From a virus: a DNA stretch of 64,000 bases. A model generated the notes under the pieces. It saw nothing but the letters and a program-made list of their open reading frames with translations, made no database searches and was not told the DNA's origin. This document shows positions 5,390 through 60,017 of this stretch, in pieces. A program made the position numbers and the translations under genes. The stretch is from positions 108,011 to 172,010 of the IMG/VR virus record IMGVR_UViG_3300021440_000014, one strand, 5' to 3'. Numbering within the stretch: the stretch's first letter is position 1; every line of letters starts with the position of its first letter.

Positions 5390-5403
5390 AAATTAAAAAG
5401 TTG

Positions 5404-5518
5404 AGCACGGCAGGATTTTAACCTGCAAATCCCTTGTACAAGGAATATTTATTGGGTTTCTCAGTTGTATCTAATAGGGCAAATCCCTCCCTTGCTTTTT
5501 ACATTCCGCCACGCGCTC
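5404..5518 (-). ncRNA. Leu-like tRNA-like RNA with long insert (115 nt)
   Basis: Ends pair as a 7-bp acceptor (GAGCGCG with CGTGCTC). After it come TG and a D-arm GCG-GAATGTAAAAA-GC, and the 3' part ends in a T-arm GCAGG-TTAAAAT-CCTGC. About 65 nt lie between the D- and T-arms, including CCTTGTACAAGG, instead of a normal anticodon arm and variable loop. The elbow pair reads GT (D-loop) with TA (T-loop), i.e. T19-A56. No convincing anticodon. Confidence 0.5.
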
Positions 5519-5524
5519 ATAAAT

Positions 5525-5673
5525 TGGTGCCCCGCTAGGAATCGAACCTAGTTTCTTCGCAATACTACTTTACCGCATAGGACGTTACTAAAGCCACGTT
5601 CGCTTGTTCTCGTTCCCTGTAGCGTTTCGCCTTGGCTACAGCAAGAATCTCACTTGCAGACCAATCTCGGGGC
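5525..5673 (-). ncRNA. tRNA-like RNA with inserted domain (149 nt)
   Basis: 3' part is a canonical T-arm CTAGG-TTCGATT-CCTAG followed by GCGGGGC and ACCA. The 5' end GCCCCG pairs with it (6 bp, then an A.G mismatch). Between them lie a hairpin GCAAG-TGAGATT-CTTGC that resembles a second T-arm, a 7-bp hairpin CTGTAGC...GCTACAG, and a D-loop-like ATGCGGTAAAG. Too short for a tmRNA. No anticodon assigned. Confidence 0.45.
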
Positions 5674-5686
5674 TAAATTAAAGTTT

Positions 5687-5828
5687 TGGATACGGCAAGA
5701 TTTGATACTTGTAATTTATCTTGATAGGACTCGAACCTACAGTCCTTTTTCAATAGGAAGTCCTGTTTATACAGGTAGAGCGTCCCTACCACTCACAGCA
5801 AGATTGCGTCTACTTCCGCCACGTATCC
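5687..5828 (-). ncRNA. Nested tRNA-like RNA (tRNA inside a tRNA)
   Basis: Outer part: acceptor GGATACG/CGTATCC, D-arm GCG-GAAGTAGA-CGC, T-arm ending CTTGC with loop TATCAAAT. Inner part: ATCTTG pairs with CAAGAT and encloses a D-arm with GG (GAG-TGGTAGGGACG-CTC), a hairpin CCTG-TATAAA-CAGG and a canonical T-arm GTAGG-TTCGAGT-CCTAT. So a second tRNA-like body appears to sit inside the first. Anticodon unclear. Confidence 0.4.
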
Positions 5829-5840
5829 ATTAAAAGTGAA

Positions 5841-5923
5841 TTGACTGTAGTTGTCATTGAGTTCTTACATCCAGCATTATACTGGGCCACGCTCATATGT
5901 TTACATATTGCAACTACAGTCAA
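5841..5923 (-). ncRNA. Structured RNA closed by a perfect 13-bp stem
   Basis: TTGACTGTAGTTG at one end pairs perfectly with CAACTACAGTCAA at the other. Inside are hairpins ATATG-TAAA-CATAT and CCAG-TATAATG-CTGG. No T-arm, so not a normal tRNA. Lies in the RNA cluster between tRNA-like elements. Confidence 0.45.
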
Positions 5924-5930
5924 ATTGAAT

Positions 5931-6052
5931 TCCCCGCCGTGAGAGTCTGTCTTTCTTCGGTTTTAATGTGACAGTAACCGCTTCTATTGCTCTCTCACAC
6001 TTCTCTATCTTTAGACTCGTCTAAGTAGATTCTGCCAGCACAGGCACGGGGA
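5931..6052 (-). ncRNA. Structured RNA closed by TCCCCG/CGGGGA
   Basis: A 6-bp outer stem encloses a 7-bp stem GTGAGAG/CTCTCAC, an inner CGGTT...AACCG hairpin and the palindrome TTAGACGAGTCTAA. Not recognisable as a tRNA although it lies in a tRNA-like cluster. Confidence 0.4.
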
Positions 6053-6063
6053 AATATCAAAAA

Positions 6064-24570: not shown

Positions 24571-24602
24571 GGTGGAAGTGAGAAGAAATTGGTGGAAGTG
24601 AG
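24571..24602. repeat. 12-bp direct repeat of the tmRNA 3' end
   Basis: GGTGGAAGTGAG occurs at 24571-24582 and again at 24591-24602; the second copy is the 3' acceptor end of the tmRNA. It looks like a target duplication at the tmRNA/HNH junction. Confidence 0.7.
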
Positions 24603-25028
24603 GGAAGTCGAATCCCTGTCTCTAACAATCAACTACTTACGTTTACATGCTTATATCAGTTTAATTTTCTGTAACAAAAACTGATCAAATTTTATTACAG
24701 AGTTTACTATTTAGCCTTTAGTTAAGAAACAAGTAACTTACTTGCTAAAAGTCCTGAAAATTCGCAACTTGACCTATCAGGAGTCAATCGAGTTGCGGGT
24801 AACAGCGATTAGGCTGCTACGGCTTGGTTAAAATCAACTGCTTCAACATTTCCCAAATATGAATCTGGGTTATTGAAGATCTCTTCGGCTTGCGCCAAGA
24901 GAGCATTGATTTCTGCATCATTTTCGTCAGCATTTATTTTTTGATTACATATTTATAGACGCCAAGCAATCTTCGTCTGCATGTAGTATTAATAGACCAA
25001 TTTTTAGATCGATACCATTTACACTCCC
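24590..25028 (-). ncRNA. ssrA: tmRNA (transfer-messenger RNA)
   Basis: 5' GGGAGTG pairs with 3' CACTTCC (7 bp), and the end reads A-CCA. The 5' part has the tmRNA D-loop-like TGGTATCGATC; the 3' part has T-arm AGGGA-TTCGACT-TCCCT. Between are a PK1-like stem (AGACG/CGTCT), a tag frame at 24931-24809 and a 7-bp stem CGCAACT/AGTTGCG. The tag starts ADENDAEINALLAQ and ends NQAVAA, a protease-degron-like end, with UAA stop. The 40-codon tag is far longer than the ~10 of most tmRNAs. Total 439 nt. It would tag and rescue stalled ribosomes with SmpB (not in window). Confidence 0.93.
24809..24931 (-). CDS. tmRNA-encoded tag peptide frame (40 codons + stop)
   Basis: Resume codon GCT at 24931 after ATAAAT; reads ADENDAEINALL near the start and AVDFNQAVAA at the end, then TAA. 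The start resembles ANDENYALAA-type tags and the end AVAA resembles ClpXP-recognised tails. It is not initiated by itself but read by trans-translation. Confidence 0.85.
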   Translation of the reverse strand, partial: ADENDAEINALLAQAEEIFNNPDSYLGNVEAVDFNQAVAA

Positions 25029-43277: not shown

Positions 43278-44237
43278 ATGAAAAAAGAAAAAATATGTAA
43301 AAAATGCAATAATAATTTTATTATTAATTTCAAAATAAATGACAAAAATATATGTCTCTCTAACCGAAGTTTTTGCTTATTATGTAAACCTAAAAGACAA
43401 AAAATATCGAAAGATGCTATAGAAAATATAATAAAAGAATATAATTTAATTGGAGCAGAAGAATGCCAAAAGAAATTTAAAATATCAAAAAATCAAATTA
43501 CATATATTGCTTCTAAATATAAATTAAAATTAAATCCAAAAACTCATAGTAAAATAAAATCTAAAAGTAAAATAGAGATAGATCCTTTTAAATACAAAGT
43601 TAATCATCTTTCATTCAGTAATATAAATAATTCAATATGCGCTTATATATTAGGGCTAATTTGGACAGATGGACATATTAATTCAAGAAATAACTCGATT
43701 ATATTTTCAACCACATATCCTGATTCCGAATATTTTTCTAAAGAATTCTTAAAAACAGGTTCATGGAACATTTATAGATATAAGTCTAATAAAAATCACA
43801 AAGATAAAATATCAATAATAACTACTAATAAATTCCTAAAAGAAACATTAGTATCTTTGGGTTTTTTAGAAAAAATAAAAGGGTTAGAAAAAGTTTATGA
43901 ACATATACCAGAAAATCTAAAACATTATTTTATTCGGGGGCTAATAGATGGAGACGGATGCTTTTATGTTAATAAAAAGAAATCGATTTATCGTTTTTCT
44001 CTATGCTCCTGTTTAAATCAAAACTGGAACTGCATACAAAAACTACTAGATTCACTTAGCATAAAGTATAAAATAGAAAACTCTACTACAAAAAATGGAT
44101 CTTATAGCAAAATACATATTAGTGGCATACCTAATGTAAAAAAATTTGGCGACTTCGTTTATAGAAATCGCCAAGATGACTTTATTGGATTAGATCGTAA
44201 ATATAAAAAATATTTAGAAGTTCAATTTAAAACCTAA
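43278..44237 (+). CDS. LAGLIDADG homing endonuclease
   Basis: 319 aa. N-terminal zinc finger CKKCNNNF...CLLCK, a helix-turn-helix (GAEECQKKFKISKNQITYIA), then two LAGLIDADG helices, YILGLIWTDGHI and FIRGLIDGDGCF. Single chain, so monomeric. TATAAT lies 6 nt before the ATG. It runs against its neighbours and overlaps the 3' end of the DUF2828 gene by 11 bp. Confidence 0.88.
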   Translation: MKKEKICKKCNNNFIINFKINDKNICLSNRSFCLLCKPKRQKISKDAIENIIKEYNLIGAEECQKKFKISKNQITYIASKYKLKLNPKTHSKIKSKSKIEIDPFKYKVNHLSFSNINNSICAYILGLIWTDGHINSRNNSIIFSTTYPDSEYFSKEFLKTGSWNIYRYKSNKNHKDKISIITTNKFLKETLVSLGFLEKIKGLEKVYEHIPENLKHYFIRGLIDGDGCFYVNKKKSIYRFSLCSCLNQNWNCIQKLLDSLSIKYKIENSTTKNGSYSKIHISGIPNVKKFGDFVYRNRQDDFIGLDRKYKKYLEVQFKT

Positions 44238-45807
44238 CATTCGCATATCTCTCCGAAGAAAGGATCTTAACCATTTCGTCGTAAGGATTCGTGATTTTTC
44301 CGCCAAGAATGAACTTTATAGTGCTTGGCGAACTTCCGCTGACAAGCATCACTCCGTCCTCATTCATCTTAGCAGGACTATTATCTTCTCTCGCGTTAAG
44401 ATTCCAGAAGATTATTTCTGGCATTTTATACTTCGCGGCCTTATATTTAGACTTAATAACCTCAAGGTTAGTAAGCTTATTAGACTTGCAAGCTGTATTG
44501 AATTCCATGTCAGAAAAGACAATAAGCTTCTTAGGCATATCGGACTGCTTCACTTTTCTTGCTTTGGCGGACTCAAGAATTAACTCAAATGCCGCTTGCA
44601 AATTAGTGCTTCCACCCCAAGATGCTTTTCTGATATTATTAATCTTTTCGTATACTGTGCTTCCGTTAACAGTCTGCAATTTAGGACTCTCTTCAAAGGT
44701 TATAAACCAATTTTTGAATGGACCGTTATTTCTTTCTGAAACGTAAAGACCCAATCCAATTGAAGAATACATAGGAGGAACACTTGCTCCACCGCTTAAC
44801 ATCGAGCTTGACACGTCAATCAATGGAATCATTGAACACTCACTTCCCTCAAAGAAATCAGGCAAATTATTCCACATAACATCAACTGATGAAGTTGCAT
44901 CTCCACTTAGAACGCTTCTAACTATGTCGTAAGGATAAAGTCCAGAAGTATTGATTTTAACTTCTCCCTTAGCCGCCTTATCTAAGAAGGCTGCATATCT
45001 CTCGTTGTCATTACGAGCAAAAGCCTTTCTATAAAGAAAACCGGCTCTGGAAGGAATCTTATCGTAACTAATAGAACTCCAGTCCTTTTTGCACATGGCC
45101 TGCTCTACAAGAGAAATTTTCTTTCTGAGAAAAGACAAAATCCTACGATAGTTTCTCTCTGAAAGACTCATGAAAGAGGCAAACTTTAGCCCCATCTTTC
45201 GGCTCTCAAGCGAAGAGGCATTGGTCGAAGGCATCCATTTGGCAATAAGCGATGGATTCTCACTGCTGAGATCCGCGTGAAGCTTGTTGTTGATAAATGT
45301 CATCATCTGCTTCTCACACTGCGTTCCAACTAACTCAAAGAGATCGTCAGTTCTTCCATAAAAAAGAATATTCTCAAAGTTGGCTGTAACCACATTAGGA
45401 TAGTTGGAGGCAAGCCATCTTAGGCAAGTTCTAAATGTCTTTCTTTCGCCTTGCCCGCCACGTATATCTCTAATATAAAAAAGAGCCTTCATAGCAAGGT
45501 CGCTATTTTCGAACAATGCCTTTTTAAAGGCGTCCACAACTACGGCTTCAGTTTGAGATCTAAACGCTCCAGCCTTGGAAAAGAAATCCAAGACCTTATC
45601 TCCAGTAGACTTGTTAGTAAGTGCTCCATTAGCAGTAAAAACCTTAGCCTTGGAAGTATCCTCTAAAACCATCGCTTTGAGCAATGGATTAATATTACTA
45701 GAAGGTAGTGCGTTGGCTTTGAAAGAAGCTTGGCTTACGCTCTTTGAGTCTGAAACCTTCTTCTTCGCCTTTGGTAGCTTATTTAACTGTTCGTTAATGT
45801 TTTTCAT
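44227..45807 (-). CDS. DUF2828/TROVE-like protein (Ro60-related)
   Basis: 526 aa. Residues ~85-300 are HEAT-like helices with FYIRDIRGGQGERKTFRTCLRWLA, NILFYGRTDDLF and WMPSTNASS, the DUF2828 signature related to TROVE/Ro60. Residues ~320-500 are a VWA-like domain (MIPLIDVSSSMLSG, SWGGSTNLQAAFE, IVFSDMEF). Ro proteins bind misfolded small RNAs and Y RNAs, so in a genome rich in odd tRNA-like RNAs an RNA-chaperone role is plausible. Confidence 0.8.
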   Translation of the reverse strand: MKNINEQLNKLPKAKKKVSDSKSVSQASFKANALPSSNINPLLKAMVLEDTSKAKVFTANGALTNKSTGDKVLDFFSKAGAFRSQTEAVVVDAFKKALFENSDLAMKALFYIRDIRGGQGERKTFRTCLRWLASNYPNVVTANFENILFYGRTDDLFELVGTQCEKQMMTFINNKLHADLSSENPSLIAKWMPSTNASSLESRKMGLKFASFMSLSERNYRRILSFLRKKISLVEQAMCKKDWSSISYDKIPSRAGFLYRKAFARNDNERYAAFLDKAAKGEVKINTSGLYPYDIVRSVLSGDATSSVDVMWNNLPDFFEGSECSMIPLIDVSSSMLSGGASVPPMYSSIGLGLYVSERNNGPFKNWFITFEESPKLQTVNGSTVYEKINNIRKASWGGSTNLQAAFELILESAKARKVKQSDMPKKLIVFSDMEFNTACKSNKLTNLEVIKSKYKAAKYKMPEIIFWNLNAREDNSPAKMNEDGVMLVSGSSPSTIKFILGGKITNPYDEMVKILSSERYANVRF

Positions 45808-57226: not shown

Positions 57227-57715
57227 TTATCTTCCGGTGCTTCCAAAGCCGCCCTCTTTTCTTTCCGTATCAGAAAGCTCACCCTCTTCAAATTCCGCTT
57301 CGTGGCATTCCTCGAAAACTATTTGAGCAATTTTGTCTCCTGCTTTAATTTTAAAACCCTCTTTTCTCGGAAAACAAGAAGCCATAGGATGTCCTATTAT
57401 CGAGTTTGTTTGTGGTGGCTCAGTTAAATTAATTAATATTACTCCTACTTCTCCTCTATACGTCGCGTCTACCACTCCAGCTAGAACGTCTATGCCTGCT
57501 TTGAGCGCAGAACCGCTCCTTGGAGCTATTCTTCCGTAATAACCTTCAGGAATCTCTATTTTTAATCCTATTTTATTACATAGCCTCTGCATGGGAAAAA
57601 TCTCAGCATCTTCAACTGCATATAAATCATATCCAGCATCACCTTTTCTCTTTGTAGGAATCTTGGCTAAAGGATGAATCAGCTTATACTTTATCTTAAT
57701 CTTATGGGTATCCAT
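57227..57715 (-). CDS. dut: dUTP diphosphatase (dUTPase)
   Basis: 162 aa. GDAGYDLYA (motif 1), APRSGSALKAGI (2), VVDATYRGEV (3), RKEGGFGSTGR (5). Trimeric dUTPase that keeps dUTP low and makes dUMP for ThyX. Complete length. Confidence 0.92.
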   Translation of the reverse strand: MDTHKIKIKYKLIHPLAKIPTKRKGDAGYDLYAVEDAEIFPMQRLCNKIGLKIEIPEGYYGRIAPRSGSALKAGIDVLAGVVDATYRGEVGVILINLTEPPQTNSIIGHPMASCFPRKEGFKIKAGDKIAQIVFEECHEAEFEEGELSDTERKEGGFGSTGR

Positions 57716-57819: not shown

Positions 57820-58266
57820 ATGACTATAGTTAACGCAAATCAAAAACTCTTTGAATATTTGAAGACGAACGATTCTGTTTATCTATCAAATACCAAGAAA
57901 AAGGATGATTTTTTAAAAATAGTCACTTTATCGGACTCAGAAGAGAGGGACCGTGTTGCTCTGCTTTTATCCTTAAGAGGGTTTGAGGAGAGAGGCATTC
58001 TAAAGAAAAGCGACAATGAAGAACTTTGGATTTTGGTTAAACCTCTGGAATCGTATGAACAGCAAATTACGCTAGACTATGATTCTGTCGCTTCTATTTC
58101 TGGGATTATTAATAAATTCTGTGAGTCTAATGCTAATAAAACAGATGTTTGTGATATACTCGACATTAGGCAAAAAGATATTAAAAATTTAATTTTAATT
58201 ACTTTGCATTTTATCGATAGGGTAAATTCACAAAAACCAGATCAAAATTCTGTAGACGAAGAATAA
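57820..58266 (+). CDS. Hypothetical helical protein, first plus-strand gene
   Basis: 148 aa from the ATG at 57820; a TTG 36 nt upstream is in frame but lies in the promoter (TTGAAA, TATACT 4 nt before ATG). All helical, with a winged-helix-like middle. Not recognised. Confidence 0.55.
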   Translation: MTIVNANQKLFEYLKTNDSVYLSNTKKKDDFLKIVTLSDSEERDRVALLLSLRGFEERGILKKSDNEELWILVKPLESYEQQITLDYDSVASISGIINKFCESNANKTDVCDILDIRQKDIKNLILITLHFIDRVNSQKPDQNSVDEE

Positions 58267-58736
58267 ACATAGCTCCCGTTGAGCAAAGGTGTGCCACACG
58301 CCCCGGATCATTAGGTTGAAGTGGTAGTAAAGCTGCTATAAAAAAAATTAAGCGGGCAACGCGCCGAGAGATGCGACCCGGAAACGATATGCTCTTGCAG
58401 TAAAAAGACCCTCTTTTCGAAGAGGAAATACATACGAAGGCATTATATCGGAGAGTAGTTATGGGCTAAATACGATTTTCAGGGGTGGAAACTACCTTAC
58501 ACCCGTTAAGTATTTAGGGGGAGAGACACTCCATGTTCCTATTGGAAGAGATAACGCAGTGGAGCTTGCGATAACCTTTTTGGGTTTTTCTTTTTGAAAA
58601 AACTGAAAGGGAAATCTCTCATTTCATTCGAGTTTTAGTCGAAGCCATTTGGAAGTCATACAAATAAATGAAGTTTACTGAAGTATGAATTATGTCTATA
58701 TATGTTGTTAGCGGAATTTATTGAAGTTTACAATAT
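58267..58736 (+). ncRNA. Large structured noncoding RNA candidate (~470 nt)
   Basis: No frame. On the plus strand many stems: GTGT-GCC-ACAC, CGGG...CCCG around CGC...GCG, CCTCTT-TTCG-AAGAGG, TAAATAC...GTATTTA around GGGTG...CACCC, GGAG-AGACA-CTCC, and AACC-TTTTT-GGGTT followed by T-runs. High density of GNRA/UUCG-like loops. I cannot assign it to tmRNA, RNase P RNA or a group I/II intron; large phage RNAs such as GOLLD or ROOL are one possibility. Confidence 0.45.
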
Positions 58737-58754
58737 GTGTTTATTAAGTATAAT
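58727..58754 (+). promoter_or_regulatory. Promoter, leaderless start for dNMP kinase
   Basis: TTTACA, 16 nt, TATAAT, then 6 nt to the ATG at 58761. Confidence 0.65.
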
Positions 58755-58760
58755 TTATAT

Positions 58761-59417
58761 ATGATCATTAGTAATTTAGATAGTTTGATAGGTATTACAG
58801 GTGTAGCTACATGTGGTAAAGATACGTTTTATAGATTATTTAGTAGAAGAGTTTATGAATTATGTAATTGTAAAACACAAAGGTTTGCTTTAGCTGATGA
58901 ATTAAAAGAAGAAGTTAGAGATTTTTTAATTAAAGATTATGGAGTAGATATTCTTAATTGTAGCCCAGAACAGAAAGAATCAGTTAGACCTTATTTGGTA
59001 TTTTATGGAAATTTTAAAAGATTTCAGTCAAATGGAAGTCTTTGGTGGGAGAAGGTTAAAAAGAAAATGGAGAGTCAACCGTTCGATCCTTCTTTATTAA
59101 CATTAATTACTGATATCAGATATTCCCAATACCAAAAAGATGATTTATATTTCATAATGTCTAATAGTGGATATTTAATTCATATTTCTAGACTAGATAA
59201 AAATAACAATATAGTTCCTCCCGCCAACATAAATGAAAAGACCTACGATCCTATAATGCGCAAAAATGCAAATATTTGCATAAAATGGCCAACTACTTCA
59301 GATGAATCTATCCTTCTTGAGTATGTTGATAAAGTTATAGATGATTATATCATTTTTAGAGGTTATAATAATATTTCCACCTATATAAAAAGAAAAATTA
59401 GAAATGTTAATGTCTAA
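58761..59417 (+). CDS. Deoxynucleoside monophosphate kinase
   Basis: 218 aa from the ATG at 58761. LIGITGVATCGKDTFYRLF has the P-loop GxxxxGKDT of phage dNMP kinases (T4 gp1-like). LITDIRYSQYQ follows as the base-binding region. Makes dNDPs for phage DNA. An 8-codon longer start is possible but lies in the promoter. Confidence 0.8.
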   Translation: MIISNLDSLIGITGVATCGKDTFYRLFSRRVYELCNCKTQRFALADELKEEVRDFLIKDYGVDILNCSPEQKESVRPYLVFYGNFKRFQSNGSLWWEKVKKKMESQPFDPSLLTLITDIRYSQYQKDDLYFIMSNSGYLIHISRLDKNNNIVPPANINEKTYDPIMRKNANICIKWPTTSDESILLEYVDKVIDDYIIFRGYNNISTYIKRKIRNVNV

Positions 59418-59435
59418 TTACTATAATCTATATTA

Positions 59436-60017
59436 ATGGAAAAATTAACAGATCTAGAGCTAATCGAGAAAGTCAAAGTAGACAATGATAGCGACAGTTT
59501 TGTAGAGCTATCTAGGAGGCATACCCCTCTTTGTAAGAATATCTATAATAGATATCAATCTTCTATTACTTCGTCAGGGCTTTGTTTTGAAGATGTTAAA
59601 GATGAAAAAGATAATGTAATATACAAAGCTTTAATGAGTTATCAGCCTGATAAAAATGTTAAATTCTCAACTTGGCTGGGTAATTCAGTTAAATATCACT
59701 GTCTTAATAGCATAAATTCCAATGGCAGAACCATTGCTATGGAAGAAAAAGATTTAGTAAAAGTATCTGATAGCCAAGATCTTGTAAAGGCTAATGAGAA
59801 CATAGAAATAGAGCAAAAAGAATACGTTTATAATATCTTGAACCAACTTTCTGATGAACGAATTAGAAAGATTTTTATGCTTAGATTTTTCTCAAATTCA
59901 CCTAAAAAGAAATCTTGGAGCAAAATAGGAGAAGAGATTGGCGTTAGCACTCAAACTGCTCTAAACCTTTACAGAAAAGGACTTAAAATTCTGAAAATAA
60001 AAGTTAAAAATAGTTGA
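59436..60017 (+). CDS. Sigma-70 family RNA polymerase sigma factor
   Basis: 193 aa. Region 2 (FSTWLGNSVKYHCLN at ~80-95) and region 4 (WSKIGEEIGVSTQTALNLYRKGLKILK) helix-turn-helix flank a short linker. No region 1 or 3, like phage late sigma factors. TATAAT lies 8 nt before its ATG. Probably redirects host RNA polymerase to late genes. Confidence 0.85.
   Translation: MEKLTDLELIEKVKVDNDSDSFVELSRRHTPLCKNIYNRYQSSITSSGLCFEDVKDEKDNVIYKALMSYQPDKNVKFSTWLGNSVKYHCLNSINSNGRTIAMEEKDLVKVSDSQDLVKANENIEIEQKEYVYNILNQLSDERIRKIFMLRFFSNSPKKKSWSKIGEEIGVSTQTALNLYRKGLKILKIKVKNS

What the first reader, a model, noticed from the sequence alone, without database searches (positions are those of the whole stretch)
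58267..58736. Large structured noncoding RNA before the plus-strand genes
About 470 bp without coding, dense in stems and stable loops, with GC above the surrounding genes. It is not a tRNA, tmRNA, RNase P RNA or intron that I can recognise. Large phage RNAs (GOLLD, ROOL) are known near tRNAs, and this could be one or a new class.
Basis: partly seen in the sequence, partly recalled or inferred. Interest (0 to 1): 0.7.

Follow-up and report, generated by a model that had tools for sequence, protein, structure and literature searches.

The report
Phage RNA gene in swappable slot
Between two genes of an uncultivated phage lies a roughly 330-base stretch that probably makes an RNA of no known family; related phages carry other, clearly structured RNAs at the same place, so the site looks like a docking point for interchangeable viral RNAs of unknown job.

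Summary
The stretch is non-coding. Only the first ~330 nt (58267-~58600) are GC-rich (45% against 34.5%); the rest is an AT-rich promoter region for the next gene. Its folding energy is not better than shuffled sequence, and no Rfam family matches. No relative of the sequence was found, so its own structure is unproven. Synteny gives the real support. In a clade of uncultivated phages with the order dut(-) | p160-kin-sigma-gt, the p160-kin gap is either at most 41 nt or at least 379 nt, and the long gaps hold non-coding RNAs. One type (alpha, 12 records, ~370 nt) is a proven structured RNA: every base-pair cell is kept, with compensatory changes in 14 of 16 pairs. It has its own TTGACA/T-N17-TAnnnT promoter and can also sit behind dut. 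Two further types (beta, gamma) sit at the same site. None is in Rfam. The window's RNA fits the site, size and GC profile but matches none of them. Best reading: a stand-alone phage RNA gene, a fourth type at an exchangeable RNA site, acting in trans in early infection (function inferred). It is not GOLLD or ROOL.

The parts
58267..58600 (+). Putative structured non-coding RNA ('delta' type); ends approximate
   Evidence: Non-coding, GC 45% against 34.5%, same site and size as RNA genes of relatives; no Rfam match
58288..58302 (+). Hairpin GGTGTG-CCA-CACGCC
   Evidence: Pair probability about 0.7; no covariation available
58321..58339 (+). Hairpin of 8 pairs
   Evidence: Pair probability 0.8-0.93
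58385..58450 (+). Long hairpin CGATATGC...GCATTATATCG with an inner UUCG-loop stem (58410-58425)
   Evidence: Pair probability 0.5-0.99
58466..58517 (+). Hairpin CTAAATAC...GTATTTAG with inner GGGTG/CACCC
   Evidence: Pair probability about 0.8
58575..58611 (+). U-rich hairpin with T-runs, possible 3' end or weak terminator
   Evidence: Pair probability about 0.95; not picked by the terminator scan
58674..58754 (+). AT-rich promoter region of the next gene, two similar promoter-like units; best TTTACA-16-TATAAT at 58727-58754
57820..58266 (+). p160: conserved gene of unknown function left of the RNA
   Evidence: Homologues in relatives; no Pfam or PHROG match
58761..59417 (+). kin: deoxynucleoside monophosphate kinase right of the RNA
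   Evidence: phrog_139, E 1.4e-10
59436..60017 (+). RNA polymerase sigma factor of the syntenic block
   Evidence: phrog_351, Sigma70_r2
57227..57715 (-). dUTPase; the alternative site of the alpha RNA in relatives is behind this gene
   Evidence: phrog_135

Best explanation
The stretch 58267-~58600 is the gene of a stand-alone structured RNA of about 330 nt. It occupies a site (after p160, alternatively after the divergent dUTPase gene) at which phages of this clade carry one of several different structured RNAs. It is most likely made early in infection, either from its own promoter or cut from the p160 transcript, and acts in trans by folding and binding a host or phage protein or ribonucleoprotein. 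The exchange of RNA types at one site suggests selection for variety, as in host-specific takeover or counter-defence factors. Shown: the non-coding GC-rich stretch, the conserved site, covarying structure and own promoters in the relatives' RNAs. Inferred: that the window's own stretch is transcribed and folded. Pure inference: action in trans, early timing, target.
For: Conserved gene order dut(-)|p160-kin-sig-gt in relatives. Among 33 loci with p160 and kin on one strand, 22 have a gap of at most 41 nt, 7 have 379-488 nt and 4 have more with an extra gene; none lies between. The window has 494 nt. The long gaps are non-coding and mostly GC-rich first, AT-rich last, like the window. Type alpha: strong covariation (192 of 192 cells paired, 14 of 16 pairs changed on both sides, no shuffle reaches it; slid controls 38-59%). 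Four members used in neither alignment nor model were found by the model, all behind dut. Promoters TTGAC(A/T)-N17 just upstream of most alpha, beta and gamma RNAs.
Against: The window sequence has no detectable homologue, so no covariation can be tested on it. Its fold is no more stable than shuffles. No clear promoter of its own: best TCGACA-17-AAAAAT, inside p160. No transcript data.
Confidence: 0.62

Rival explanations
1. Cis-acting RNA: a long leader that regulates kin and the sigma factor, or a 3' UTR that protects p160 mRNA.
For: Lies directly between p160 and kin on the same strand; no clear promoter of its own in the window.
Against: kin has a strong promoter ending 6 nt before its ATG (TTTACA-16-TATAAT), so its transcript would carry no RNA leader. 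The alpha RNA of relatives has its own promoter and also sits behind dut on the other strand, without kin.
Confidence: 0.15
2. Not an RNA gene: a decayed or foreign piece of DNA, or a DNA element such as a replication origin, at a site that tolerates inserts.
For: Singleton sequence, ordinary folding energy. The GC-skew minimum of the whole 172 kb record lies about 370 bases to the left.
Against: Same site, length and GC profile as RNA genes in relatives. The skew turn coincides with the change of gene strand between dut and p160, which explains it without an origin.
Confidence: 0.17
3. A very diverged member of the alpha RNA family rather than a separate type.
For: Same site and similar size.
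Against: At the same protein distance (gt 50-60% identity) alpha members still score 248-338 bits against the alpha profile, while the window slot gives no hit. The alpha covariance model gives at best 7.8 bits there, with most of the model skipped.
Confidence: 0.05
4. A GOLLD or ROOL RNA.
For: Phage-borne, large, non-coding.
Against: No Rfam match at E up to 10 with permissive filters; ~330 nt against more than 800 nt for many GOLLD RNAs (PMC12286853); not near a tRNA island.
Confidence: 0.01

Closest known systems
ROOL RNA (phage/prophage, unknown function)
   Same: Large structured phage-encoded RNA with unknown role
   Different: No sequence/structure match; shorter; not beside a tRNA island; alternative RNAs occupy the site in relatives
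GOLLD RNA (phage/prophage, unknown function)
   Same: Phage-encoded, unknown role, own gene
   Different: Many members exceed 800 nt and lie near tRNA islands (PMC12286853); no match here
Alpha RNA of this clade (described here; L267, L268, L299, L302, L315, L323, L326-L328, L345, L357, L358)
   Same: Same gene neighbourhood, similar size and GC profile
   Different: No sequence or covariance-model match to the window; alpha has clear promoters and proven helices

Membership tests
   No match at E up to 10 in the window with filters; best 7.8 bits, mostly skipped model, with filters off; none in the whole record
   p160-RNA-kin order, 494 nt gap
   Best site TCGACA-17-AAAAAT about 80 nt upstream, inside p160
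GOLLD (Rfam) | Match to the Rfam model | tested here: not met
ROOL (Rfam) | Match to the Rfam model | tested here: not met
GOLLD / ROOL | Often near tRNA islands | tested here: not met
   Nearest tRNA about 17 kb away
GOLLD / ROOL | Multimeric RNA-only cage | not testable with these tools
   Needs cryo-EM
tRNA / tmRNA / RNase P / group I or II intron | Match to the Rfam models | tested here: not met
   the tmRNA at 24590-25028 shows that models work in this genome
Structured RNA in general | Compensatory base changes in homologues | tested here: inconclusive
   No homologue of the window sequence found; met for alpha at the same site

The most novel reading that the evidence does not exclude
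The dut/p160/kin region of this phage clade is a dedicated RNA exchange site at which unrelated, promoter-driven structured RNAs of 300-450 nt replace each other, an RNA counterpart of the variable defence/counter-defence islands of phages; the window carries a fourth, so far unique type.
Probability: 0.4. Interest if true: 0.78.

Novelty: new variant of a known kind. Interest (0 to 1): 0.5.

Why it matters
Few large phage RNAs are known, and the functions of GOLLD and ROOL are unresolved. A clade in which a proven new RNA family and at least two further types trade places at one site gives many natural variants, clear gene borders and promoters, and so a practical route to function by comparing phages with, without and with different RNAs.

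Tried and rejected
Searches for homologues of the window RNA by blastn in phages and plasmids, by exact 15-16-mers in IMG/VR (hits were chance or, for GGAGAGTAGTTATGGG, start sites of genes), by BLAST of 50 related records and by single-sequence covariance models in about 90 related records: nothing. tRNA-like reading of the RNA: no T-arm found by eye. SD+mini-ORF GGAGAGTAGTTATGGGCTAA at 58450: similar motifs occur about 20 times in the window, so not meaningful. Structure prediction of p160: too poor to use (pLDDT 40). Ro/TROVE-like protein as partner: present in the window's record and in two records without an alpha hit, in none of the alpha records tested, so no association. Paper searches gave no report of these RNAs (only three searches).

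Full report
Observation. The window is the right end of a 172,010-base virus record. Between p160 (stop at 58266) and the kinase gene (likely start ATG 58761) no coding frame exists on the + strand before 58702, and the minus-strand frames are at most 40 aa. GC is 45% over 58280-58579 against a window mean of 34.5%; only 2% of stretches reach this, and to the right of 13 kb nearly all the others are tRNA or tmRNA regions. From about 58620 the GC falls to 20-30% and the stretch holds promoter-like sites of the kinase gene, the best TTTACA-16-TATAAT ending 6 nt before its ATG. So the RNA-like part is about 330 nt, not 470.

Structure of the window sequence alone. Several local hairpins are predicted with high probability, but the total energy is not lower than that of dinucleotide shuffles (z -0.98; -0.85 and -1.14; -0.14). 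The tmRNA of this genome gives -6.4 in the same test. The test is weak: the gamma-type RNAs described below score near zero although they show compensatory changes (for example CCAGAC/GTCTGG against CCAATC/GATTGG, visible). No Rfam family matches, with curated thresholds or, above chance level, at E up to 10 on the region alone.

Relatives. Direct searches for the sequence found nothing. An alignment of the neighbouring glycosyltransferase-like protein brought in 80 loci of a large clade of uncultivated phages; the protein has no match among phage records with tblastn. They share the order dut(-) | p160-kin-sigma-p103-gt-p118 with the window. In 33 loci with p160 and kin on one strand the gap is at most 41 nt (or the genes overlap) in 22, 379-488 nt in 7, and longer with an extra gene in 4; nothing lies between (some loci are near-duplicates). 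The window has 494 nt. The long gaps are non-coding, mostly GC-rich in their first three quarters and AT-rich at the end, as in the window.

Alpha RNAs. Eight of these gaps align with each other. The consensus structure has 26 pairs with changes on both sides. In the core, 16 pairs keep pairing in 99% of cells, with double changes in 13 pairs; none of 500 shuffles reaches these values, except 2 for the number of pair types, and sliding the partner drops pairing to 40-58%. A covariance model then found four further members used in neither alignment nor model; with them pairing is 100% of 192 cells and 14 of 16 pairs have double changes. The alignment was fitted to the model, the one was not. 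These four sit behind dut on the opposite strand. Most alpha RNAs have TTGAC(A/T)-N17-TAnnnT directly upstream; L299 and L323 are weaker. Alpha is therefore a separate RNA gene, not a leader of kin. It was not found in a further 50 related records. Rfam does not know it.

Other types at the same site. Beta (L283, L336, L340) and gamma (L303/L304, L329/L331) are other conserved sequences between p160 or dut and kin or sigma, also with TTGAC(A/T)-N17 promoters (the -10 of L304 is weak) and without Rfam matches above chance. Beta rests on three sequences and gamma on two distinct ones, so their structures are less well supported than alpha's. At the same protein distance (gt 50-60% identity) alpha members score 248-338 bits against the alpha profile, but beta, gamma and the window slot give no meaningful score. 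The alpha model finds nothing in the window. The window RNA ('delta') is thus a fourth type or an extremely diverged one.

Interpretation. The site argument makes an RNA gene the best reading of the window stretch. Its transcription, exact ends and structure are not shown. Action in trans and early timing are inferred from alpha's own promoter, its independence of kin and the neighbouring nucleotide-metabolism and sigma genes. The idea that variety is selected rests only on the exchange of types. Negative searches have limits: the collection may leave out records very near the window's genome, the metagenome collection could not be scanned, and single-sequence covariance models are insensitive.

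Known families. GOLLD and ROOL are phage-borne, often near tRNA islands, and many GOLLD RNAs exceed 800 nt (PMC12286853, read). The window RNA fails the model tests, is shorter, and lies about 17 kb from the nearest tRNA.

Noticed in passing
window 5390-6063 (-): Three or more tRNA-like RNAs with large insertions that ARAGORN does not call, e.g. GGATACG...TAGGTTCGAGTCCTA-[extra hairpin]-CCGTATCCA (5824-5690) and a ~150 nt GCCCCG...CTAGGTTCGATTCCTAGCGGGGCACCA (5676-5524); further GC-rich gaps at 24.6-42 kb may hold more.
   Followed up: partly
window 44227-45807 (-): Ro/TROVE-like RNA-binding protein (phrog_850, DUF7788 + DUF2828, weak VWA); also in records of L271 and L272 but in no alpha-RNA record tested.
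   Followed up: partly
window, all genes: Almost no Shine-Dalgarno sequences (10 scattered hits over 102 ORFs), and TATAAT-like hexamers enriched 0-10 nt before ATG, suggesting leaderless or SD-free mRNAs.
   Followed up: partly
window 57894: Minimum of cumulative GC skew of the whole 172 kb record, at the divergent dut/p160 start; may mark an origin or just the change of gene strand.
   Followed up: no
L305:15220-15685, L316:13130-13498 and 9 similar loci; L275:2275-2677 and 4 similar; L282:14528-14900: Further recurrent GC-rich non-coding clusters in the clade without Rfam match in the members scanned (in L282 next to a tmRNA), possibly more new RNAs.
   Followed up: partly
L271:4886-5268, L272:4369-4861: Non-coding GC-rich stretches behind dut that match neither alpha nor each other, possibly further RNA types at the alternative site.
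   Followed up: no
window 58450-58469: SD-like GGAG, 7 nt, then ATG GGC TAA mini-ORF inside the RNA; similar motifs are frequent in the window, probably chance.
   Followed up: yes
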